From NCBI GenBank assembly GCA_022457155.1, contig JAJGOT010000039.1, forward strand, positions 467,001-531,000: 64,000 bases of DNA. The letters run 5' to 3'. The number at the start of each line of letters is the position of its first letter. The first letter of the stretch is position 1. This document shows positions 8,837-63,933 of this stretch, one piece after another. The stretch comes from Cladopsammia gracilis (taxonomy: Eukaryota > Cnidaria > Anthozoa > Scleractinia > Dendrophylliidae). The position numbers and the translations under genes are program-made. Under the pieces are notes generated by a model that was not told where the DNA came from, searched no databases, and saw only the letters and a program-made list of their open reading frames with translations.

Positions 8837-9067
8837 TTTTGCGTGTAACACCTCCTTTTGCAACTGAATTTTTGTTTTTTTAAGTTGCACGATGAGTTGA
8901 ATCGTTTTCTACTTTCTGCAACAAATTTCTTCAAGTTGCACAACAAAAATACGTGTAACATGGCTCTTGCAACTTGTTTCGCGATTCACAGTAAAACGTC
9001 ACATCCATGCTGGGCTGTGATTGGTTAACTAAAAAAAGTGTAGCAAATTAACGCCACTGTTGACAAA

Positions 9068-10177
9068 ATGGCGGACGTCGCCGACTTACGGCTAGAAGCC
9101 GAAGAAGACGAAGAAAGCCACCATCAGCAGCCCGTGAGAAAGCTCAGTGACGTCGAAAAGAATAGGCTAATTGACTGTTTGGCTGGTTATCCCGCTTTGT
9201 GGAAGGGGGGAAGCTTTACCCGCGAGGAGAGAGTCAAGGCGAGCGAGGAGCTTTGTTTAAAGTTTTCTTTAACAGAGGAAAACTTGAGAAGAGTCATACA
9301 CTCTTTGCGGTCTTCTCTCACCCGAGAACTGAAACGAGCTAAAGAAAGAGAGGATTATGAAAGTACCTGGAAGTTTTTTAAAAGAATGGCATTTATGAAG
9401 GATGATGTTATGAGAAGTTTGACGCAGGAAGCAACGAAATCATCGAAGGAATGGAGCGACGAAGAGGTGAATATACTGATTGATCATTATCAAAGCAACC
9501 CTGTACTTTGGGATCATCGTTCAAAGGAATATCGAGACAGAGATCTGCGAAAACTTGCTCTGGATAAGCTTAAAGAAATCTTACAGTGCAAGTCTGAAGA
9601 AGAAATCAAGGCGCAATGGCACATGCTGAAAACAATTTTTCAGAGGGAAGAAAAGAGGCAAGAAGGCAGTAAAACATCGGGAAAGGGCACGTGTGAAGTC
9701 TATAAATCCAAGTGGAAGTTTTTTGAGGTCATGGCTTTTATTAAGCAGTGCAAAGATGTCGACGAATCTCAAAACACTATGTCCATAGTAGATGGCACAT
9801 CTTCAGAACTCGGAGTTGCACACATTTGTCCCCCTTCAGGCAGAAAGAGGAAAGCGAAAAGTAACGAGTTGGTCTTGGAAGAAATGAAAGTGCAGATGTA
9901 CAAATCATGTATGGATATTTTGAAACCATGTCCTATTCCAGAAAACATGGAACCGACACTAAATGAAGATCAAACTTTCGGGAAAACCGTCGCTGACACC
10001 CTTGCACGCTTTTCAGCCCGACAAAAGGCAGTTGCCAAGAAGAGAATAAGCGATGTTCTTTTCGAGACTGAGATGGGATTCGAGTACGGTGTCAACGCAA
10101 GCAACATGTATACAGGTCCCTCGACTTCTGGTTTCAATTACCCTCCAGCAAGTTTTTCTGAGCATTTTCAGTACTAA
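9068..10177 (+). CDS. MADF/Myb-like DNA-binding protein of the Harbinger element
   Basis: This intact single-exon gene encodes 369 residues. Two tandem MADF/Myb-SANT-like domains are visible, at about residues 26-113 and 128-235. Each has the spaced tryptophans of the family (YPALWKGG and STWKFFKRMAF; NPVLWDHR and SKWKFFEVMAF). The C-terminal third is basic and then low in complexity. In PIF/Harbinger elements the companion Myb-like protein helps bring the transposase to the nucleus and to the element ends; that role is known for the family and inferred here. The ATG at 9,068 is preceded by CAAA and starts a natural acidic N-terminus. The gene lies about 230 bp inside the left terminal repeat and faces the transposase. 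No stop or frameshift was seen. Confidence 0.88.
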   Translation: MADVADLRLEAEEDEESHHQQPVRKLSDVEKNRLIDCLAGYPALWKGGSFTREERVKASEELCLKFSLTEENLRRVIHSLRSSLTRELKRAKEREDYESTWKFFKRMAFMKDDVMRSLTQEATKSSKEWSDEEVNILIDHYQSNPVLWDHRSKEYRDRDLRKLALDKLKEILQCKSEEEIKAQWHMLKTIFQREEKRQEGSKTSGKGTCEVYKSKWKFFEVMAFIKQCKDVDESQNTMSIVDGTSSELGVAHICPPSGRKRKAKSNELVLEEMKVQMYKSCMDILKPCPIPENMEPTLNEDQTFGKTVADTLARFSARQKAVAKKRISDVLFETEMGFEYGVNASNMYTGPSTSGFNYPPASFSEHFQY

Positions 10178-13851: not shown

Positions 13852-15341
13852 TTAAGAGAGACCACACTGGCGCCACTGCCATGGTACTGCCCCTTCATTG
13901 TTGAAGTAATCAGTGTATTCCTCCCTGATTGATTTTGCATCGCCACTGTAGTTGTTGCTGCAAACTGGGTCAAAGCTAAGCCATGAAAAGCTGCTTTGCT
14001 CATTGCGCCATGAGCCAGGGGAAATGTCACCAGTGACTTCATCCTCAATATCAATGAGCTGTGCTGGAGCATAGTCCTTTGAAGATTCCGGACTGAGTAT
14101 TAAGAAGTTGTGAAGTGTTATTACAGCCAGGGTGATGGGTATTACCTTTTCAGGACAAAGACGGATTGGGGATCTGAAAATGGCCCAACGGTTAGCCATG
14201 ATTCCAAAAGCATTTTCAGAGATTCTTCTTTTTCGGGAAAGCCTGTAGTTGAAAATCCTGCGTTCTGTCGTGAGGCCAGATTGCGGGTAAGGTTTCATCA
14301 TGTATCTGGTGAGTGCAAAAGCATCGTCTCCAGTAAGAACATATGGTACAGGTGTCCTTCTACCTGGAAGAGGGGTTGCTTTGGGTAAGTTAAGCAGATT
14401 TTCTGTTGACGACAATGCTTGCCTGAACTGACATTTCTGCCAAACAGTACCATCCGAGGCTCTACCATTTGTGCCAACATCAGCCCACAAAATTTCATAT
14501 TCAGGACCAACAGCTGCAAGCAAGATAACACTGTTATTTCCCTTATAGTCGTAATAGTGAGAACCACTATTTGCGGGCTGTTGGATGATGATTCGTTTGC
14601 CGTCTACGGCTCCAATTCCATTTGGAAAGTTCCACCGCTGTTGAAATATTGAAGCTATGCGCAACCAATCCTCATTTGTACAAGGAACTTTCAGGAACTC
14701 TGGAGATAACAACTTGAAGATTGCTTGACATGTTTCTATTATAATATCAGAAATTGCAGTTCGACTAATTCTGAACTGAAACTCAAGCGACTTGAATGAT
14801 TCACCAGTGGCCAGATGTCGAAGAGTGACAGCCAACCTTTCATTTGGTTTGATACTGGATCTCATAGCTGTGTCATTCTTTCTGATAAAACTATCGATGT
14901 TATCGACAAGAAAGCTAAAACGCGTCTTGTCCATACGAAAGTAGTTTTGGTAAGCCACTTCGTCTTCGAGTTCAAGTTCGGCGACCAACTAAGAAATATG
15001 AGAAAAACGAAACATAGATGATTATAAAGTTTAAAGTCAGTCGTCAAGCCAACGTTCAAGGAAAAAGGTTACTTGTGCATCCACAAAAAAAAAGAAATTT
15101 ATGTGACATAATTTATTGTTTATACGCTTTCAATTCGCTTTTAATAATATAAACAAACACTTCTTTGAAGTACCTGGTGAAAACATCCTCTTTGTTCGCG
15201 TCTTGAGAGCCATGGCCTTATCCAAGTCTTCTTTTTTCGTCTTTTCCGGGGCGGCTCCTCTTCGAATACAAATTCCAACAAACACAACACTGCGATAGCT
15301 TTCCTCTTTTGACGACTAACATGATGAAGCACGCCCGCCAT
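13852..15341 (-). CDS. PIF/Harbinger DDE transposase (HARBI1-like), two exons
   Basis: This is the element's transposase. Exon 2 (13,852-14,988) holds the catalytic core, with D in GAVDGKR (about residue 185), D in LTGDDAFAL (about 278) and E in RRISENAFGI (about 314). Exon 1 (about 15,174-15,341, from the ATG of MAGVLHH) ends in the WIRPWLSRRE box that normally precedes the core in this family. The 185-bp intron (14,989-15,173) has GT-AG ends and joins the exons in phase 0, giving about 434 residues, a usual length. An in-frame ATG four codons upstream is an alternative start. No internal stop was seen. The gene sits just inside the right terminal repeat and faces the MADF gene. It may be active, but that is inferred. 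Confidence 0.9.
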
Positions 15342-30454: not shown

Positions 30455-31507
30455 TTAAATACCCAATGACAAAGAAACAGACAACAGCGCTTGAACATTG
30501 TCCTTGATGTAGCCATCCTTGGCTCTATTCGATTTCCATCGCCCATGCCTTTTAAACAATCTATCAGTGACTTGGGCATTAGCTGCGGCAGAGGCACCTC
30601 CAGCTCTAAGGCTATGAATACCGTAATCATGTTTGGGAAGGCCAATGTCATCAAAAGTGCCCAGCACTATCTCGCGCGCTGTAGAGTAGGACAATGGATC
30701 AGAACTGTGGAATTTGTAAGATCTGTTACTACTGCAAAAAGTGAGGGAACAAAAAATAAAATCTTCACCATCTACTGGAAAAGAAGCGGCTGCAAAATAT
30801 CGTAAAGCTAACAGAACAGGACAAGTAGACTTGAAAGTTTTAGCAATAAGAACCCAAGCCCCGTCTCTATAGATGTCCGTCTTACTACGTTGAACGAAAA
30901 TTCTCATAAAAGAATCCTCAAATTGAAAATCACACCTGCGTAATTGCACTAACTCGTTAAAGCGAAAAAATCCTGCATAACCTAAAACACACAACATGAG
31001 AACTCGTAAATCAGCTAAACTAGCAGAGGTGGAACCATAATGAGCAACTAAGCGTTGAATGATGACCAGAGTCACCGGTTCTTTCTTTTTAACCGGAACA
31101 CTAAGAAGCCTTCTTGTGGATTCTATTAATGGCAACACGAATGGTGAATTACATGGGTCAGGCTGACCCGCTAAATCATTAACCCATTTAAGGCCATAAT
31201 GAACTTCATCAATAATGCTACAAGAAACAGATTCCTGAATTAAACTAAGAAAAAACAAAGAAACATACACACTAGACGCGGGAAATATTACAATTTCTTT
31301 GAACTGCGAAGCCCACTTTCTCCACGCGTTGAAGCCTCTCTCGTATTTCTTCGTGGTGGTGGCAGCTTTACTTTGAAGAAGAACTGCTGGGAGATCTTGA
31401 AGCAATGCCTTGAGGTGACCGTCTTCAATATGTTGAAAATTAGGCTGCAAGGCGCTTTCGACAACATCTATGAGAATGAAAACAACAATACACTGGAAAC
31501 AAAACAA
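30455..31507 (-). CDS. Tyrosine recombinase of the DIRS/Ngaro-type element
   Basis: An open frame of 350 residues encodes a phage-integrase-fold recombinase, the enzyme YR retroelements use in place of a DDE integrase. The catalytic set is complete: R in FRFNEL (about residue 182), HSLR (298-301), HGRW (321) and Y in KDGYI (333). The N-terminal half is the SAM-like core-binding domain (TTKKYERGFNAWRKW). It is the last gene of the element, just upstream of B1. No stop or frameshift is seen, unlike the RT in the same element. The annotated start is a non-canonical first codon region, so the exact N-terminus is uncertain. It may still be functional. Confidence 0.85.
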   Translation of the reverse strand: MFCFQCIVVFILIDVVESALQPNFQHIEDGHLKALLQDLPAVLLQSKAATTTKKYERGFNAWRKWASQFKEIVIFPASSVYVSLFFLSLIQESVSCSIIDEVHYGLKWVNDLAGQPDPCNSPFVLPLIESTRRLLSVPVKKKEPVTLVIIQRLVAHYGSTSASLADLRVLMLCVLGYAGFFRFNELVQLRRCDFQFEDSFMRIFVQRSKTDIYRDGAWVLIAKTFKSTCPVLLALRYFAAASFPVDGEDFIFCSLTFCSSNRSYKFHSSDPLSYSTAREIVLGTFDDIGLPKHDYGIHSLRAGGASAAANAQVTDRLFKRHGRWKSNRAKDGYIKDNVQALLSVSLSLGI

Positions 31508-31744
31508 ATCAGGAAAAACATGTCAATTAAATTCGACTCTAACTGCACTCAGTGTGCGAAATTCCTCCACGCCACTCGGCGAATTCCATCTGTGGAAGAA
31601 AAACAAGCCACTCGGCAAACTAGTTTCATTCGAAACATTATGAACAAACTGACAACACCACTAGAACTCGTAAGCCGAAACACAAATCGGTGAATCGCAA
31701 CCGGGATCAAAAGCCACTCGGCATAAAGGCACTAATTGCCGAGA

Positions 31745-34780: not shown

Positions 34781-35745
34781 TTTGTTGACCCAGGGATAGA
34801 AGTGTAGTCGCAGTAATGGATTTCTTCTCCGGGCTGGGTCTCGCAGAGGAGTTGAATGGCGTTGGTTTGACCTCCAAAAAAAGCATATCTCGATTCTAAG
34901 CGTTGCACCAATTTCAAGTTGTGGAGGAAATTCTGGATGGTCACATCCGCTTTCTTTTGCACATTCCATTGGCATTCCCACATTTCAACAAGACCATATC
35001 CAGCATCTCGGATGACTTGATTGCATTCCATGGTCGTACCATAAATTGGACGCATGGATATGTCATTGAGTTATTTGTGTCATTGGTCTCGGTTAGGAAA
35101 ATATTCGGGACATCCGTGGAAAAAGCATCCTTGGAATTCGTACACCGTGTTGGTTCGCTTGTCAAATCCATCGCGTGTTCTCCTCTGTTGCCAGCATGTG
35201 CAAGTGAATCTTCCATGCTGTCTCATTCTTGTCTCAATTGATGCTCGATCCAATGCAACTATTCCATAGAAGTGAACGAATGGGGTTTGCTTTTTCCTTT
35301 ACATCCGCAAATGGGTTCGGAAGCAATGGTGTATTCTTGCAGGCATTTCTTGCAGTAGTAGCGGTTGCAGGCTGAGGCAATCGTGATGCATTCTTCCATG
35401 GGGTTGAAATCGGCCAATACTTTGAACTCTTGTTGGAACTGCATGCATCCTTCTTTCAACAGTCGTACATCCGATTTGCAGTAGTCAATGAGTTCTTGTT
35501 GAAAGTTGAAGAGGTAATTCTCATCACATTTAGCTTTGTGCCACTTTTCAAACTCTTGCCTGTGTTCCAGTTTCATTCCCATTGGATCATAGTAATCTTA
35601 TTCTTGGTTCTCTTGGGTGTTGAAAAAATGGGGGAAAAAACCCTTTTTTCAGTTCCTTAAGTGCAAAGGCTTTTGTGAATCCTGAAAGTGACATTTGCAG
35701 GAATGCCATGCTGTCAATGAATTTCAATGACCCCACCACAGGAAA

Positions 35746-52269: not shown

Positions 52270-54842
52270 TCATCCAATTATGCCAATTTTCAGCGATAAA
52301 ATTATTGCCCCAATTCTGGCTCGTGATTTCAAAAGCCGATGCCCCCAAGCGAGAGTGCTAATTCCATGTTCGGAAATAAATCTTTTATCATCATCAGCAC
52401 TCAAAGCAATCTTGTTGACGGTCTCAGAATATATTTCATGTTTTTGGCTTCTGATTACGTTCATTTTTCTCATTTGTTTTGCTTTTGTTAATAAACATTC
52501 CTTATAGTCTTCATAAGTTATCTTTTTCTTTGTTACTGCCTTTGATATTCCTTTGCATTTTTTTGTTCTGCCACCTTCAAACATGTTATAACTATATAAT
52601 TTAGATCTCAATCCGACAAATTCTGTGATTATCTTTCTGCCTGCTTCATCCTTCATGAGACCAATGACTTTTTTGTTCAAACCTGTGGGAATTCCTGATG
52701 GGTGATCTTTAGGGATATCACTTGTGTCAAACTTTTCTTTAACATCATTGCTGATGTCCTTGAAGAAGTCTTCAGTTTCAATTTCATACGCAAAGCTGTC
52801 TGTGTCTGTGAATAACAACTGCGCCTTTTTCCAATTCTTTTTCACATAATTATAGTGAAAATCAACCATCAATGTTTTTGACAGATCGTGAATTGCCATT
52901 CCTCAATAAACTGGTTCATTCTTCATCAGTCATCCATGCAAAATCTCCTAAAGGAAGTGGTTGTATCACTGCCCAACCAGTTTGCATCCAAATATGGGAT
53001 GAATGTTGCTGGTTTTGTTGGATCGTATTGATCACCCATATATTTATTGTTTGCCTTTCCTAAACGATGTGTTATTGTAGAAATCCCACCACGAGTTCCT
53101 TGTCCAAAGAAAAGCAGCATATCTGGATCATTCAAGTCCAATGTCACATTGCTTTCTTTCAATACGGCATCCCAAGCCAACCCAGGAGCTGTGTAATACC
53201 AAGCAGGATCCAACCCATAGTGTTCCAGGCAGACTTTTCGGAATTCTTCAAACACATCAGCCAATAGGCATACATCATATATATATCCAATATATTAATT
53301 CCATTTGGCTCAACGCTATGTATTGGTACATTTAATGCTTCAAAATCTGCATACACAACAAAGGGTATTTTCGTTGATTTGAAGAAATTCTTGAATTTAA
53401 CTTGGCTACCTTCTTTAGGCATTTCAATCTTAACTGATTCAGTTCTTGAGCAACTCTCGTCATGAAGCTCCAATTTCTTTTTGTCTGGGAAATGGTTTAA
53501 ACATCTCTGGCGGAAGAAGTTTGCTTTTTGATGATTTGTAACTTGACTGGATAAAAGTCTACTTAAACTTTTAATGACACAATAATGTTTGTCTTCGTTC
53601 TCTTCATCAGCAATAAGGAGAAGGTCCACATTTTTATTTTGTTTTCCTCTTTTGCTGATTCTCAAGGGATAAATAACACCTTCAAATCCAAAAACATTCA
53701 CAGAGATGTCTGGATTTAGTCGCTGGAATTTATCAATCTCTTTCAATTCTACTGGGAATTTAACTCCAGTCCAATTCAGATTTTCAGATTGTTTAACCAA
53801 TTCTCGTGTTATTCTTTCTGCGCTTTTCTCAACTGGATTCAAAGCTCTTGTAACGGCCCATTTTAAGCATTGATCGTCTTCATTTTTCATGTTTATCAAT
53901 GCTTTTTTATTCTTCAAACTCTTTGGAAGATCCATCCAACTGTTTCCCTTCAGGGGATCAAATTCTACCAAATGAATTTCCAACCGAATAACTCTATCAA
54001 ATCTCCAGTTGGATCCCCGTCTTTGAAAGGCTGCCATTGCTTCCATAGCTGTGTCATTCATGCGTTGAAGCAATTCATTTTCAATTGTTGACGCCAAATT
54101 AATTTCAATACCTGAATGGAATGCAGCCTCATCGCCAATAATCTCGCCAGTTGCCATAACAGTTCTTTCCATATTGCAAACCAAAACCAACTTAACCTTG
54201 GTTTGTTTGTTTTCCGTCAAGATTTCCAACACCAATGGCTTGATTGCTGTGAAAAATATTTCAGGATCTATCCCAGGCCGGCCTTCAATTGTGAATTGCC
54301 TTGCTAAGTTTCTTAAAGCAGATAAGCTTTCTTTTACTTTAAACTCTTCCTCTGCAACTGGGCGGCCTCTTAATTCTGCAAGCTTTTGCTTTAGTTCTTT
54401 TTGTTTTAATATCAAGTCATTGTGTGGCCGTTTGCTATTTCTCAACTTTTTATCGACTTTGCAAAGCTTTTTCTTCAGCCGTTTTATTTGCTTTTGCTTT
54501 GTTTTCAAATCAATCGGCTCAGGTAGTGGTGGAATCCACACATCTTTGGATTGCCTTTTAGGTCTCATTTGATACTCAAGAAATGTTTGCATTTTCGCTT
54601 TTGTCTTGATATTCTCAAAGCCTTCTAACCCATAATGTCTAGCCATACCTTTCATTTCTGATAACGTCGGCTCTGAGGTTGACGGCATTTGAGAGTCCCG
54701 CATTATGGGCCTCTGAGGCCCGCATTACAGGCCTCTGTGGCTTGTTTCTATTGGCAACCAAAAGCTCAATTAATTCAGCTTTTGTTTTAGCTTTGGAACG
54801 ACCTTTAATCTTTAAATCACTTACTAATTTTCTCAACTCCAC
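52270..54842 (-). pseudogene. Polinton/adintovirus-type DNA polymerase B, copy B, core deleted
   Basis: The N-terminal frame (54,842, then 54,703-53,159 after a frameshift) begins with a SAP-like stretch (LVSDLKIKGRSKAKTKAEL). It has a Lys-rich coiled coil and a long family-specific region (CLKWAVTRALNPVEKSAER, RLLSSQVTNHQ), and reaches the exonuclease start at PFVVYADFEAL. The palm fragment (53,264-52,926) has GGISTITHRLGKANNKYM and YLDAN. The C-terminal frame (52,899-52,270) has motif C, LLFTDTDSFAYEIE, and a KMNVIRSQKHEIY block. Between YLDAN and motif C roughly 300 residues, including motif B, are missing, and several frameshifts are present. It differs from copies A and C and is dead. 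Confidence 0.85.
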
Positions 54843-56178: not shown

Positions 56179-56820
56179 TTATACCTTTTGGATGTAAACG
56201 TACTGGGTGTCCCCAGGGAAGATGTTAGTTCGCAACCAGAAGTCGGCAGGTGTTTCCGGCTTAAGATTGCATAATAAATACCCATAAGGTCTTTTTGTTG
56301 CATCTTGGAAGGCTTCTTGCACATATTTTGTATGACCGGGAAACATCTGTTTTGCTAAATGAGTCACTTGACTGCTATCGCGTGGAGATGTAAACAGAAC
56401 TAGATAATGACAGTTTAAGCTCATATCTCTTAATTCTTTTCTGCGGTGAAAGATGTTTTGCAAAATAAAGATGACACTCAAGTTGCGGTGATGACATCCT
56501 TTCGTAAATAGACTAGTAATTCTGTGATCATTACTAAGCTCTTGCATTAGATCATCAATAACCACAAGGTTTCGAATCGATGGATTTATCATGGATTCCA
56601 AGTCACTCGGGACTCCCTCCACAAAAGTAATGTTAGGAATAGTTTGCAACATTTCATCGTACGCTGGTTGATAAATCCCGTAACACCATATAATATTTTC
56701 AGGCGCCCCATCAATCACGTCTTCTCCTGATTCTAATAAACGTTTAACAAATTGACTTTTTCCGTAACCCGTTGGTCCGGCCACAAGCGCGGGGAAGGGA
56801 TGTTTCCACCTCGGATCCAT
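56179..56820 (-). CDS. A32/FtsK-HerA-like packaging ATPase of a Polinton-type element
   Basis: An intact frame encodes 213 residues from the ATG at 56,820 (MDPRWKHPF), a start favoured because it precedes the first core strand. Walker A is GPTGYGKS (residues 15-22) and Walker B is NLVVIDDL (84-91). A Gln in SVIFILQN and an Arg in TSPRDSSQ fit the sensor and finger positions of the family. These ATPases pump DNA into virus-like particles in Polintons, adintoviruses and related groups. An open extension runs 37 codons upstream, overlapping the zinc-finger ORF in another frame. It lies downstream of PolB copy C on the same strand. No damage is seen, unlike PolB. Confidence 0.82.
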   Translation of the reverse strand: MDPRWKHPFPALVAGPTGYGKSQFVKRLLESGEDVIDGAPENIIWCYGIYQPAYDEMLQTIPNITFVEGVPSDLESMINPSIRNLVVIDDLMQELSNDHRITSLFTKGCHHRNLSVIFILQNIFHRRKELRDMSLNCHYLVLFTSPRDSSQVTHLAKQMFPGHTKYVQEAFQDATKRPYGYLLCNLKPETPADFWLRTNIFPGDTQYVYIQKV

Positions 56821-56857
56821 GATCACAACTGACTGGTTAAACTGTGAACACTGTGAT

Positions 56858-57052
56858 TTATAGAAAAATCGTTTTATGTTCAACCTCTTTCCCATACACA
56901 CGAACCATGTTGGTGTTTTGTAATTTAGCAAATTGGAGCCAATATCTCCGTTCGAGTTCAGTTAAGTCATGTACTTGAGATAAATGATTTGCTAATTTCA
57001 CTAAAAATTTCGCATGACAATCAGGAATGGGACAATGTTTACATTTCCTTCG
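56858..57052 (-). CDS. Small C2H2-like zinc-finger ORF upstream of the ATPase
   Basis: A frame of about 65 codons starts at an ATG (MVRRKCKHCPIPDCHAKF). A cluster with the form C-x2-C-x4-C and two histidines (HLSQVH) could fold around zinc. A charged ELERRYWLQFAKLQ helix follows. It ends 37 bp before the ATPase start on the same strand, so the two may be co-transcribed or splicing partners. I associate similar small ORFs with coral mobile elements, but that is memory. No function is assigned. Confidence 0.5.
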   Translation of the reverse strand, partial: RRKCKHCPIPDCHAKFLVKLANHLSQVHDLTELERRYWLQFAKLQNTNMVRVYGKEVEHKTIFL

Positions 57053-57089: not shown

Positions 57090-57440
57090 ACAAATCTGTT
57101 TGAAACACGAAATTTATGGCTAATTCATTAAGCAATTAAGGGCCACAAGGGACAAAAGGGACACTTTTTAACGTTGTGTTTTTACCTGGGATTGCGCGTG
57201 TAGGTCGCCCGCGCGTTGAGTCAGGAAACAAGCCATGATTAAAATTCTGCCAACTTTGTTTATTTACAAACGATTTTCCTATATACAAAACAACTATAAA
57301 ATGCTACGCCAAAATACTATTTACAAATTGAAGCGATCTTATATAAATATTTCGGAAAACTATTTTTGAGAGTAATATATATAAACTTGAGAAAACTAAA
57401 ATTATTTACAAAAAAAAAACTATATACAATACTTAAATGG
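57090..57440. other. Spacer between the zinc-finger ORF and PolB copy C
   Basis: It contains a short open segment ATG..CAG followed by GTAAAA at about 57,187-57,237 (minus) that could be mistaken for a first exon. The 3' end of PolB copy C beyond its conserved part was not found here. Confidence 0.4.
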
Positions 57441-58150
57441 TGCTTACTTTTTGGATAAAAATAGGAAAAGGCATCCCTCACTTGTGTATAGGTATACATG
57501 GTGTTGTTCACAACATGAAAACCACGGTTAACACCAGCACTATTTTGTTTGGTTAATAGTACATTGAGATATTTTTCTTTGTTAATGTCGTTACATTTCT
57601 TGTTAACTCCTTTACAGGAAAACTTATCCTTGGCCCCAAAACAGTAATAAGTCTTAGAACACAACCCCACGATTCCTTGACCCTCCCACTCGACTTTGAA
57701 AAGCCCTGGTGTACTCTTATCATACGCCTTGTGTTCGGGTGTATCAGTTCTTGGAAACCAGTTAGACTTGTCTTGTTCAAATGCTACTCTCAACTCTGGT
57801 TTCACTAAAGATTCTACACTGTCCCCTGAAATGGTGATATATGCGCTGTCTGTGTCCATCTCACACATTTGAAAATCTGATCGATCTAGTTACTTGTCTA
57901 AGAAATCATAATAAAACTGCAGCATGCGAAGTTTTGCATACTGGAACACAAAAAAGCCGACTTGAATAGGTAAGTTTAACTTAATGGATTTCTTACAAGA
58001 TTCAACTTCGTAAGTGTCTTCAGTGATATTGTCCAATTTCCTGAAGAGAGGGGTGTTGACTTTCCTGCTAGCCTCTGCGTGGCTGCAGTACTCCACATTC
58101 CTGTGCTTCAATTGGTTCGTTATACATTTACCATAAGATGAATTTCCAAC

Positions 58151-58236: not shown

Positions 58237-61200
58237 CAATTTCATGGTATCTGCAATAATAGCTTTGTTGGGATCTGCATCACCTGCTCGTCTCGCGTCA
58301 GATACTGCATCTCCAAAGGTTCTGAAGCATGGTTTTGGGAGTAAACTCAATCACCTGGTGTACTTTGGTCACTTCCAAACCATGCTCCAAGTACCACTTG
58401 AGAAGGGGAGTGGCCAACAGGATCTTGTCCCCTTTCATACTGCTGATGAGACTACGTCGCGGCTGGGCCATGATGTTGTGTTCCTCCGCATGACTTTTAA
58501 TGAACTCCCCAATATCGTCTCGACTGATGTTGGTGTTCTTGAAGATGGGGCACATTTCACTGAACTTCTCCTTCAGGTGATCCGGCACACGAATATCCAC
58601 TTCCACGCACCCAAACAAACGCTCATTTCACACCTCGCTCAAAATTCGCTCGGTGCTCATGATCTTGACGGCATCCATGGTTCTTCTCACTTCAGTGGCG
58701 ATGAATCGCTGCAGTTCACGATTTGTATTCTTCATCTGTCGCCATTCGCACTCCCACATTTCCACTACATTATACCCTTTGCTCGATATACTCGGTGTTG
58801 GCTCTGGTTTCTTCGAGTAGTTCTGCCATGGGTTTGTTCCGCTTTTCGTTAAACTCTTTTCCACGATTGAGCGAGCAGTCATGTCCGTGCCAGTAACAAC
58901 CGTCAAACTGAAACACGTCTGTCTGCGCGTTGAATCCGTCAACAGGTAGTTTCTGATCGCCGATACGCTTCTCGGTGTTGTTTAATTGATGGCGGATATG
59001 AATTCTCTCTTTGTGCGCCACTCGATCGCCATCTTTATAGAACCTTTTGGTTTGAAGTTATCTTCTGCTAACCTTCTTGTGTAGCTTCCAGTTGGCATGT
59101 TCTGCACTATAGCCCACAGGTACAAAGCATTCGCATCATAACCAACAATCCCCTGGCACTGCTTAGCAGCCTGGCCTCTTTCTGCTTCTCTGAGGTTTGT
59201 TTTGCCAAGTTCATGGTAGCGGTGAAAGATAATACTTGGCCCGCCTGTGTTGTTATCCCTGATGAGATGGTAGAGATCTTTGTTGGCTTGGTGAAACAAG
59301 CTAAAGTAAGTTTGTTCGTGGAGAAACGAGAACAGGTACTTTAAGGTGAGACCGGGAACAGATATACCGTCTTTAAATATATCAATGTTTCGCTCCTGCC
59401 AGAACGCACTCATTTCCTCTACTGCCTCCAGGAAAGGTACCACATCGAGATTATTGTACCAGACTAAGAACTCTTTAAACATGGACATGTGGTTTTCTTC
59501 CCAGACTTGCTGACAGTACTGGTATTCGTCTTCTGTGATGTTTTGGTTCTTTCAGGTGGAGTAGAAATCTTCATGTGGAGGTAGCCCAGATTATCAACCC
59601 ATTCGTACGGGAAATAACCTTTGGTCTGTTCGCACTCGTAGGCTTTGAGGAACTGGTCATAGTTGAATCCAGGGGCAAGATAATTAGTAATATCCATAAA
59701 CTTGAGGAAGTCTGTCTTGAGACACATATGGTTGCTGTTTCTCTTGACGGTGAACTTGATAGGGTGGTGTTCAATGAGGTACGGGAACAGAAATTCTTTG
59801 ACAGCATTTAGATCGTACTTGCCCGAGTTGAAGCCGAGGACAGGAAGTTCTCTAAGGTACTCTGTCAGTTTTTCTTCCAGCTTGTTCAGTACTTTATGGT
59901 CACTGGTTTGTTCTTCTCCAAACAGTAAATCTTCGAGTTCCGCCAGCTCTTCTCGCCTTTGCCTCTGTTCTTGTCTTACGCCTTGGTCAAAGTCCACGTT
60001 CAATCTTCTATAAAAGGACACATCTTCCTGTTCTTCAATTTCATCATTAAGAAATGCGCGATCCTGTTCATTCTCTGGTTCAATTTCTTCGTCCCATTCA
60101 TCATCACTTGTCATTACATCGATCTCTCTACTTTCAATTTCTTCGCTTCCTTCTCCTCCCCCACCTCCAATCTCTCATCTTCTCCGGTCTGGTCTTCATC
60201 TTGCAAATCTATGAGCATTTGCGCTAACTGATCGTCTGTTGTTTCAGAGGTTCTTGCAGTCTTCAATGCTTCAAAGACAGGTGCGTACTGTTCGCGGAGC
60301 AGAGACGAACTTTTGGTGCTGATAGAAACAAGGTACTGGATGAACTCTAATAAACTCATTAGGATCACCCTCAGACACAAAGCATTTAGGTGCTTGGTAA
60401 CCAGGCACGTTACTGCACACGCTGACACTCAAAGGCACATGCGATGACTGCCAGGTCAATTTCTCGGTGTTCTTTAATTCTTCAGCTTTTTCTTTATCGA
60501 AGTAACACTCAAAGTCAAAGGTGGCGCGGAACGGGAAGTACCGTGCTTCTTTTGGGACGATAATACCTTCTTCGAGTTCCTGAAAGATGGTTTTTAGGTA
60601 CATGGTAAGCTCCGCCCAGGTATTTCAACTGTACTTTGCCATCACAGGTTTTCTCATGTCGATTGAGCCTGAACCCAGTCTTCCAATACTTGCCGCAGCG
60701 AGAACAACAACGATTTACTGTAGCGGGCAAGATCTTTGATATACGAAAAGTGGTTTTCGTACAAGTTCAAGTAAAGAGCGCTTGTGTAATGGCAGTGAGA
60801 GCGGCGGATAAGTGTGGCTGTTATCTCGGGTGTTTCTTCCTCATCATCTTCGCCGTGGGTCTGAGTCGGGGCGAGACTGTACACTTAAATGTTGACTTCA
60901 AATAACTTCTCCAACTCGTCTAGTTCAGTTAATTTCACCCCATGAAACTTCTTTTTCGAGAGTCCGGCTTCTTGGTACTTCTCATAATAGTACTGGGTGT
61001 CACGTACTAAGTTCTTAGTATGACAGCCGTTATGGAGGGCCAAACATCTGAAGAAACAGAGGTTATCTTTGTAGGGTTTTCCGGTTTGATGATTTCGATC
61101 CAACGCTTCTATTCCACGGTTGTCGACGACGTACCAGGGAAGATATTTCCCTCGACCGATCGGGTGATCGCGGATCTTTGTAATGAACCAAGTGATGTTC

Positions 61201-61799
61201 ATAGCCAAATCCACGACCCATTTACTGTTTGGCCTCTGTTGCCGCACCCACTGCAAGTAATCTATGTTTCTGATCTCTTGTGTAGCGCGCTCTAAATCGT
61301 GTGGAGTGGTGATAAGGAACGGCTGTTCCAAGAACAAATTATTGTTCACGGAGGAGTGGTGGTACTGTAAGGCGGTGGTTTCTGTGTTTCGTAAAATAAA
61401 GCCAAACGACAAGTTGACTTTAAAAACGGTGGGTTGGTCAGTAAAGATACGACTCAACTGTTTGCGGAGAGCAGTGGGACTGATCGTGGACAGGCGAAAA
61501 TTATACCAATCTTGAAGTCGGTTTTGGCGGCTGAATCTGGTTCAAATTTGTGGCCAGTGTTGTCTGTACATATTGGTGATATCTGCTTCGCTAGTTGGAA
61601 CCAGGTTAGAAGGAATGAGAACAGGATCAGCTTCCCAGCTAGACCCAGGCGCTGAGGTTTGCGGTGTGACGGATAGTTGTTCGCGCGATGCTTGTGGGAC
61701 TGAACTCCTACTCGACTGATTTGATTTCTTCGCTTTTTTAGTAGCAGGCACGTCTGTAGTTGAAGTGGCGGTGCATTTACGGCTAACAGTGGCGGAAGT

Positions 61800-62110
61800 T
61801 GGTTGAGAGGTTTGATGCGCGGTGCGAATATGAGCATTAAAGGGTGCAAGGTTGTGAAAGGTTTCGCCACAGGTTGCGCAGGGGAAGGTGTGCTCATCGA
61901 CGCATTTGTTGTGCGCCTTGAGATGTCGGTTGATGTGCGACTTCTGAGTAAATTTCTTATCACAGCGCGGACACACGGTTTTTCGGCGGTGTGGCTTCGC
62001 TGGTGGGTCTTAAAGTTATCCAAACGGGTGAACGTTTAGCCACAGATGTCGCATTGATGTTCCTTGTGAGGCTTTTTCGCTGGGGGTTGCCCAGAACCCG
62101 TTTGAACATC
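61800..62110 (-). other. C2H2 zinc-finger array at the start of PolB exon 7
   Basis: Three fingers are readable: CDICG..F then FKTHQRSH (with a TAA in the linker at 62,036), CPRCDKKFTQKSHINRHLKAH and CATCGETFHNLAPFNAH. A frameshift in an A-run at about 61,965 separates the first two. Fingers at this position may guide the protein to element DNA, which is inferred. Confidence 0.75.
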
Positions 62111-62711: not shown

Positions 62712-63933
62712 GGTTTGTGCAGGATTCCTAGTCGGCAGTTGATTCGTCTCTCCCAGCCACTGAAAATAAGAACAGAACATGAGTCTTTGAACAACATACA
62801 CCAAATGATGGTTGTGAAGAAAATCAGTTTTAAAAAGAAAACTTACTTCTTCACTTAAATCACTTTCCATTTCCAGTGGAAAATACGAGTCAGGGTTATC
62901 CTACAAGAAAACACGACAAAATTAATTTAGAATACATGGACCGCTTATTTTAAGAATGAGTAAACAGATTTGCGTTATTGTTTAGATCACATAAAGTACT
63001 GAAGTCACTAAACAACGGAAAATTCACTAATAACAGTAAATTACTTACATTTTCTAACGGCCGATGTTCCATGTCCTCGATGTCTTCCAATTCGGCTGTT
63101 GTCATCTGTAAAGCAAAGAACGTTTCGAGGTTAGTTCAAGTTAAGATAACTTGAATCCTGTGGGTATAAGTCTTATTGTACCTTAACTCATTGAACAAAG
63201 AGGTGCTAATTTCTCATGGAAATTTAGTTCAGTCAGTACCTTCGCATAATTAAACTTACTTAACGGTGCGTGAAACACGAACAACAAGGCTTTTATCGCA
63301 CTACAAAACATGTTTAACGAACTCAAAATAAACTCACCAAATCGAACAAGTCCACAGGAAGTTCATTTTCCATGTTGGTGGTTGGGATCTGGTTGCTTGA
63401 TGCCTGTGATAAGAGCATAGAATGCGATCAACAGATTGATAGATTCAGGAATGTTTGCTAATTATCTAAACGCGAAATCTACGCGTTTTTATCTCGCTAT
63501 AAAATAGTTACGAGAAGAAAGTTTAGAAATCAACTAGTAAACTTAAAAGCGTTTCGCTCGCGTGTTTGTTTTCTCAGTGGGAATAGTTATGGGGAGAAAG
63601 TTAAGCAAACTTAAAAGCATTTCACTTACCATTATCGTGGTTTCAGGGATAACTTCAGATGACAGCAAAAGATCTTCGGTGGGCCGATCCAATGGAAACT
63701 ATAAAAGAAAAGGAAATTGGTTATACGAGACTGTAGGTTAAGAAAGAGAATAATCAGATCAAGCGAAATATCAGTCATCAACTTACCGCGCATTCTAGCT
63801 CAGCTAGCCTAGCGAACGCCGTCGGCATCATTTCGTCCGGAATTCAGGACTCCACAAGAAAGTCCCAGTCGCGGGCAGACAAACAAGCGCTCAAAGCGGC
63901 TTGAAAAACATCGGCGTCGGTGAAAAAAGCCAT
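62712..63933 (-). other. Cassette of six short phase-0 exons upstream of PolB copy C
   Basis: Exon lengths are 147, 69, 66, 57, 54 and 48 bp, each a multiple of three. The introns between them are 88, 226, 232, 148 and 87 bp, with GTAAGT or GTGAGT donors, and a 601-bp intron leads to exon 7. Exon 1 has a natural ATG (MAFFTDADVFQAALS) and one TGA at 63,844. The encoded peptides are acidic and unlike any domain I know. Confidence 0.8.

What the first reader, a model, noticed from the sequence alone, without database searches (positions are those of the whole stretch)
62712..63933. A train of small, phase-0, length-divisible-by-three exons feeds a Polinton-type polymerase
Six consecutive exon-like segments with GT-AG ends are all in phase 0 and all multiples of 3 bp (147, 69, 66, 57, 54, 48). 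They lead in phase 0 into a zinc-finger plus PolB exon. Any of the middle five could be skipped without changing the frame, so the element may make a set of N-terminal isoforms of its polymerase. Splice sites and lengths are seen directly. The isoform idea is inference. Polinton PolB genes are usually drawn as one long ORF.
Basis: partly seen in the sequence, partly recalled or inferred. Interest (0 to 1): 0.82.

Follow-up and report, generated by a model that had tools for sequence, protein, structure and literature searches.

The report
Spliced exon leader on Polinton polymerase
In an animal genome that looks like a coral's, a virus-like mobile element (a Polinton) puts six small, frame-preserving exons in front of its DNA polymerase, and other copies of the element carry the same layout with different mixes of these exons.

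Summary
The exon train is real and not peculiar to this copy. The six minus-strand segments have the stated lengths; five are open in phase 0, but exon 1 holds an in-frame stop and the zinc-finger/PolB part is broken, so this copy is dead. I compared it with 39 other copies from the same 878-Mb genome. A frame-agnostic search found 166 exons e2-e6; 164 have lengths divisible by 3 although lengths vary (39-78 nt). Intron lengths follow no such rule; dN/dS is 0.19-0.71. In 26 of 35 sequences the next exon stays open in phase 0 to the end of the fetched DNA. A Porites lobata gene model has the same order without e2. The element is a Polinton by PolB, integrase, packaging ATPase, 157-bp terminal repeats and 6-bp target duplications. 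Copies differ by exon loss (e2), exon duplication (e3-e4) and exchange: L021 and L024 share termini and a 98-100% identical PolB body but differ strongly across leader and fingers. Splicing isoforms remain untested: no RNA was available.

The parts
63787..63933 (-). e1, start exon of the leader, 147 nt here (159 in 23 of 24 other-copy and window-independent calls); in-frame stop at codon 30 in this copy
   Evidence: other copies
63630..63698 (-). e2, 69 nt, phase 0, open
63338..63403 (-). e3, 66 nt, phase 0, open
63049..63105 (-). e4, 57 nt, phase 0, open
62847..62900 (-). e5, 54 nt, phase 0, open
62712..62759 (-). e6, 48 nt, phase 0, open
61545..62110 (-). first part of e7: C2H2 zinc fingers; in-frame stop after 24 codons and a frame change in this copy
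   Evidence: (zf-C2H2 5.3e-10 on 61545-62009)
58237..61541 (-). PolB body, broken over several frames; includes a Vsr-like stretch at 58773-59057
   Evidence: 78.8% identical to the PolB body of copy L074
58151..58236 (-). further GT-AG intron in PolB, read as phase 0, just before the NSxYG motif (motif name recalled)
   Evidence: sequence; donor and acceptor positions; same place in L074 and L075
57320..58150 (-). last PolB exon (open piece 57320-57889 with DTDS motif)
56182..56961 (-). packaging ATPase of the element
   Evidence: Adeno_IVa2 21.7 bits, cut-off 21; 30 of 40 genome matches lie 3.3-10.5 kb from a leader copy

Best explanation
This is the 5' end of the DNA polymerase gene of a Polinton family that is repeated, and was recently mobile, in this anthozoan-like genome. 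Transcription most likely starts in or near the terminal repeat, 340-475 bp before exon 1 (inferred). The host spliceosome joins a start exon (53 codons in most copies) and five short acidic phase-0 exons to a large exon with C2H2 zinc fingers and PolB; a further intron interrupts PolB. Shown: exon boundaries, phase, coding constraint and conservation across copies. Because the introns are phase 0, losing, duplicating or exchanging an exon keeps the frame, and copies differ in these ways. Inferred: leader and zinc fingers evolve as exchangeable cassettes in front of a more uniform polymerase and ATPase; the product carries a small helical N-terminal domain and a mostly unstructured acidic tail, perhaps for binding nuclear partners or regulation. 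The window copy is a dead member that loses colinearity with other copies beyond its ATPase.
For: Unbiased scan finds e2-e6. In 40 sequences 164 of 166 exons e2-e6 are multiples of 3 with varying lengths while introns are not; dN/dS 0.19, 0.71, 0.55, 0.30, 0.45, 0.24 for e1-e6. Exon 7 open in phase 0 to the end of the fetched DNA in 26 of 35 sequences. DNA_pol_B_2 just above cut-off in a natural copy. Porites lobata model P0146 is colinear: e1, e4, e5, e6 with 0, 0, 0 and 1 of 2000 shuffles against copy L026. Polinton hallmarks. Recent movement: sets of copies 99.7-100% identical with unlike flanks. Cassette differences.
Against: No RNA evidence at all. Only one outside protein with the leader was found, and a search with its leader alone found only itself. 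With copies L010 and L019 the e5 match to P0146 is not significant, and e2 and e3 are not significant with any of the three copies tested. A cruder count over 210 pairs found only 1 of 9 pairs with like fingers and unlike leader and 0 of 6 with like 5' ends and unlike leader; its loose gaps inflate leader identity, but it does not by itself show frequent swapping. Swap pairs were chosen by hand.
Confidence: 0.85

Rival explanations
1. One reading: single copies make a set of N-terminal polymerase isoforms by skipping any of e2-e6. Compatible with the best explanation, but a further claim.
For: All of e2-e6 are symmetric. e2 has weaker donors (13 of 21 GTRAGT, 124), the highest dN/dS, and is deleted in one lineage and absent from P0146, so the protein can do without it.
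Against: Donors of the other exons are nearly uniform GTRAGT, which fits constitutive splicing. No RNA could be examined.
Confidence: 0.3
2. Leader and zinc fingers make a separate regulator (acidic tail plus C2H2 fingers, like a transcription factor) by early termination, and the fused polymerase is a secondary product.
For: Acidic tail followed by fingers; leader and fingers differ between copies with the same PolB body.
Against: In natural copies the finger exon runs on in frame into PolB; no terminator was sought.
Confidence: 0.1
3. The mosaic pattern is an assembly artefact or late gene conversion among dead copies, without meaning for the element.
For: Repeats of about 15 kb can be mis-assembled; many copies are broken.
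Against: Contigs are long (most over 0.2 Mb) with distinct flanks for the four sets tested; exons keep coding constraint; several mosaic copies are open in the leader and fingers.
Confidence: 0.12
4. Chance splice-like sites.
For: None found beyond the short length of each segment.
Confidence: 0.01

Closest known systems
Polintons / Mavericks of animals
   Same: PolB, chromodomain integrase, packaging ATPase, terminal repeats beginning AG, 6-bp target duplications, about 14.7 kb for the C980 copy.
   Different: Intact vertebrate Mavericks are reported to have no introns, in agreement with Kapitonov and Jurka 2006 (PMC8097293, passages). Here polB has a multi-exon zinc-finger N-terminus and a further intron inside PolB.
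Schistosome micro-exon genes (MEGs)
   Same: Runs of short symmetric exons that can be left out without loss of frame (PMC8293314, passages).
   Different: MEGs are host genes with exons of 36 bp or less for exposed proteins; here the exons are 39-159 bp in a mobile element's polymerase, and alternative splicing is not shown.
Adenovirus polymerase and pTP transcripts (recalled, from no call)
   Same: A related PolB whose start codon lies in a small spliced upstream exon.
   Different: One short exon, not a train of phase-0 exons that differ between copies.

Membership tests
[quoted passage not shown]
   Natural copy L074: DNA_pol_B_2 3.3e-6, 26.7 bits against cut-off 25.8. Protein priming not testable. 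Pieces of the window copy gave no PolB family hit.
Polinton/Maverick | Retroviral-like integrase | tested here: met
   L071 (C244 copy): rve 7.6e-12 and chromodomain 2.6e-14. Not found on the window by tblastn with this protein.
Polinton/Maverick | FtsK/A32-like packaging ATPase | tested here: met
   window 56182-56961: Adeno_IVa2 21.7 bits, cut-off 21; Pox_A32 below cut-off
Polinton/Maverick | Double jelly-roll major capsid and minor capsid proteins | tested here: inconclusive
   448-aa and 254-aa ORFs in L071 without a Pfam match above cut-off; no fold was made
Polinton/Maverick | Adenain-like cysteine protease | tested here: inconclusive
   No Pfam match among the ORFs scanned; ORFs scanned were a part of each element
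[quoted passage not shown]
   C980: GAGTTG on both sides, repeat 157 bp at 100%; C244: GAAGGA on both sides. Not tested for the window copy, whose right end is missing.
Polinton/Maverick | Intronless genes (as reported for intact vertebrate elements) | tested here: not met
   a descriptive trait, not a criterion of membership
Schistosome MEG-type gene | Mostly symmetric exons of 36 bp or less | tested here: not met
   exons are symmetric but 39-159 bp
Schistosome MEG-type gene | Transcripts that skip symmetric exons | not testable with these tools
   No RNA data available

The most novel reading that the evidence does not exclude
The 5' part of this polymerase gene is a variable region built from phase-0 cassettes: elements with almost identical 5' termini and polymerase bodies carry different leader exons and zinc-finger blocks, exchanged by recombination between copies. 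The all-phase-0 layout is kept because it makes exon loss, gain and exchange harmless to the frame, so a mobile element diversifies the N-terminus of its own polymerase much as modular host genes do.
Probability: 0.4. Interest if true: 0.82.

Novelty: new variant of a known kind. Interest (0 to 1): 0.72.

Why it matters
Polinton genes are usually described as intronless, virus-like ORFs. A spliced, mosaic, zinc-finger-bearing polymerase N-terminus would tie the element's replication to host splicing and give it a module that can change while the enzyme stays the same. One genome with many closely related copies that differ in that module makes it testable what a variable N-terminus on a replication protein is for.

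Tried and rejected
Relatives in viral contigs and prokaryote genome contigs: none confirmed. A protein search with residues 1-128 of P0146 found only itself. Pfam, NCBIfam and PDB on the broken PolB pieces gave no PolB hit. The N-termini of P0176, P0160 and P0150 showed no match to the window's exons. An ORF about 1 kb upstream of e1 (L001:4794-5360) was first taken for a neighbouring gene of the element; its 40 scored candidates (of 1195) lie elsewhere than the leader copies, so it belongs to another repeat (67). A zone-wise identity count over 21 copies was set aside because cheap gaps inflate leader identity; it gave 1 of 9 and 0 of 6 pairs of the kind sought. Hand-picked pairs were then profiled with MAFFT. 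I considered that the fingers match the element's own termini; pairs that share the 5' terminal region but not the fingers (L021/L024, L026/L028) speak against it. Haplotig duplication as the cause of near-identical copies was rejected for four sets (ten contigs) because flanks about 20-25 kb away show no match within a set (the three matches over 300 bp were between different sets or within one contig).

Full report
What is there. On the minus strand of the last 1.3 kb of the window lie six segments of 147, 69, 66, 57, 54 and 48 nt, as reported. e2-e6 are open in phase 0 with AG|..|GTRAGT ends. Exon 1 is not open: its frame meets TGA at codon 30, although an in-frame ATGATG follows. The next exon, with C2H2 fingers, stops after 24 codons, and PolB is split over several frames. 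This copy is a fossil. A scan of GTRAGT donors with the best acceptor recovered e2-e6 on its own; the donor density (7 in 1300 nt) stands outside the other windows (mean 0.48 over 386 overlapping windows), and 0 of 2000 Markov sequences gave even three symmetric open exons.

Other copies. The window lies in an unnamed 878-Mb genome. The search scored 40 of 775 candidates, so copy numbers are lower bounds. I took 39 copies, some near-identical to each other. Searching each for e2-e6 without asking for frame or length class, 24, 35, 37, 33 and 37 of 40 sequences (39 copies plus the window) had e2, e3, e4, e5 and e6. Of these 166 exons, 164 have lengths divisible by three, two are 47 nt, and one of the 164 holds a stop. 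This search used exons called as references and required GT-AG ends. Lengths vary: e2 63-75, e3 57-78, e5 42-60, e6 39-48; e4 is 57 in 36 of 37. Intron lengths fall in all three classes. Nei-Gojobori dN/dS over same-length pairs from 31 sequences with near-duplicates removed (21-29 per exon) is 0.19, 0.71, 0.55, 0.30, 0.45 and 0.24 for e1-e6; exons entering that figure had already been called as open. In 26 of 35 sequences (34 copies and the window, near-duplicates included) exon 7 stays open in phase 0 from its acceptor to the end of the fetched DNA; where several acceptors fitted, the longest frame was taken. So the train is very probably translated, in this frame, into zinc fingers and PolB. 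In the natural copy L074 the frame is open for 1194 codons from the edge of the fetched piece, with a GTAAGT donor near its end; the next open piece begins at the NSxYG motif. I read that intron as phase 0. Pfam calls DNA_pol_B_2 just above its cut-off. The second PolB body, L075, changes frame once.

Across species. Protein searches found relatives (342 proteins; 953; best 120 listed each); those with organism names are anthozoan (Actinostola, Actinia, Porites, Oculina, Paramuricea), hence my guess about the host. P0146, a Porites lobata gene model, starts with e1 (residues 1-52, 30 identities to copy L026, 0 of 2000 shuffles reach the score), then a stretch in the place of e3 (residues 53-72, not significant, 607 of 2000), e4 (0 of 2000), e5 (0 of 2000) and e6 (1 of 2000), and no e2. 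With copies L010 and L019 the e5 match is not significant; with the window's own exons only e1, e6 and more weakly e4 stand out in place. A search with residues 1-128 found no second protein.

What varies. e2 is missing, with e1 and e3 in place, in L023, L027, L031, L034 and L042 and near-identical copies of these; against L010, four of the five jump at the same two points, a deletion of about 140 bp around e2, and L027 is similar. In all, 16 of 40 sequences have no findable e2, the others being broken or not covered. L025 carries a second e3-like exon and a second e4-like stretch with a stop. Copies combine different exon versions: 23 combinations among 32 sequences, gaps counted as states. 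A site-order test on 23 copies and 212 sites gives 0.289 against a permutation mean of 0.389, 0 of 1000 as low. The clearest cases are pairs picked by hand. L021 and L024 are 99-100% identical from the terminus into e1, then 50-97% through e2-e6, intron 6 and the fingers, then 97-100%, and 98-100% across the 4.8-kb PolB pieces of the same two copies. L026 and L028 are 99-100% through all six leader exons and 58-90% from about 90 bp after e6. L014 and L016 differ mainly in a patch from e4 into e5. Breakpoints are near, not strictly inside, introns. The cruder count over 210 pairs did not show leader-only swaps as common.

The element. Near-identical copies share sequence up to a sharp edge beginning AGTAGTA, with unlike flanks. 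The C980 and C244 copies end in ...CTACTACTACT with 6-bp target duplications GAGTTG and GAAGGA; the terminal repeat is 157 bp at 100% in C980. From these ends the C980 copy is about 14.7 kb. The ATG of e1 lies 340-464 bp from the terminus motif in the 18 of 31 copies where the motif was found in the fetched DNA, 388 bp in C1123 and 475 bp in the window copy. Downstream genes include an integrase with chromodomain and the packaging ATPase. The 39 other ATPase matches listed are 92-96% identical to the window's, while the other leader-region matches are 66-92%. Copies 99.7-100% identical at different sites show recent movement. Relative to L071 the window copy loses colinearity beyond about 56.17 kb.

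How it works. Shown: phase-0 exons under coding constraint lead into a zinc-finger PolB, and copies lose, double and exchange them. Inferred: promoter in or near the terminal repeat, splicing by the host, and an acidic tail (118 D+E against 11 K+R of 486 residues in e2-e6 of five copies) behind a small helical domain (pLDDT 73-81 for residues 1-50 of P0146 in a model of mean 54). The role of the tail, partner binding or regulation, is a guess. Isoforms are possible but untested; e2 is the best candidate.

Known or new. Intact vertebrate Mavericks are reported to lack introns (PMC8097293, passages). Ten library searches listed no paper whose title or shown start of abstract describes introns or exon trains in a Polinton polymerase. 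I saw passages of PMC8097293, PMC12220804, PMC6431247, PMC5718144 and PMC8293314 only; subscription papers, such as the 2006 Polinton paper, were not seen. Motif names for PolB and the adenovirus comparison are recalled.

Noticed in passing
window 63300-63254 (minus): A seventh GTAAGT in the e3-e4 intron with a TAG 41 nt upstream; the same 41-nt, non-3n spacing is seen in L010, L014, L016, L017 and L023. It could be a frame-breaking exon or plain shared ancestry.
   Followed up: partly
window 58773-59057 (minus); L074:1219-4800 residues 924-990: A stretch like Vsr mismatch endonuclease inside the PolB gene (Pfam below cut-off, PDB match E 0.0034).
   Followed up: no
window 52273-54724 (minus): A second, different long frame with PolB-like motifs (DTDS; name recalled), no Pfam polymerase hit: perhaps part of another element.
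   Followed up: no
window about 56170: Past the ATPase the window copy stops matching the gene order of copy L071, so it is truncated or joined to something else there.
   Followed up: partly
L001:4794-5360 (just outside the window): A 189-aa frame on the opposite strand upstream of the element, part of a more numerous repeat (1195 candidates, 40 scored).
   Followed up: partly
window 13855-14988 (minus), 30458-31522 (minus), 9044-10174 (plus), 35262-35597 (minus): DDE_Tnp_4 transposase, weak phage-integrase-type recombinase, MADF-domain frame, and a small DNA_pol_B_2 fragment just below cut-off.
   Followed up: no
P0176 residues 34-73 (Oculina patagonica gene model): Acidic N-terminus of a related ZnF-PolB protein with an 18-residue tandem repeat (54 nt), as a duplicated phase-0 exon would give.
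   Followed up: no
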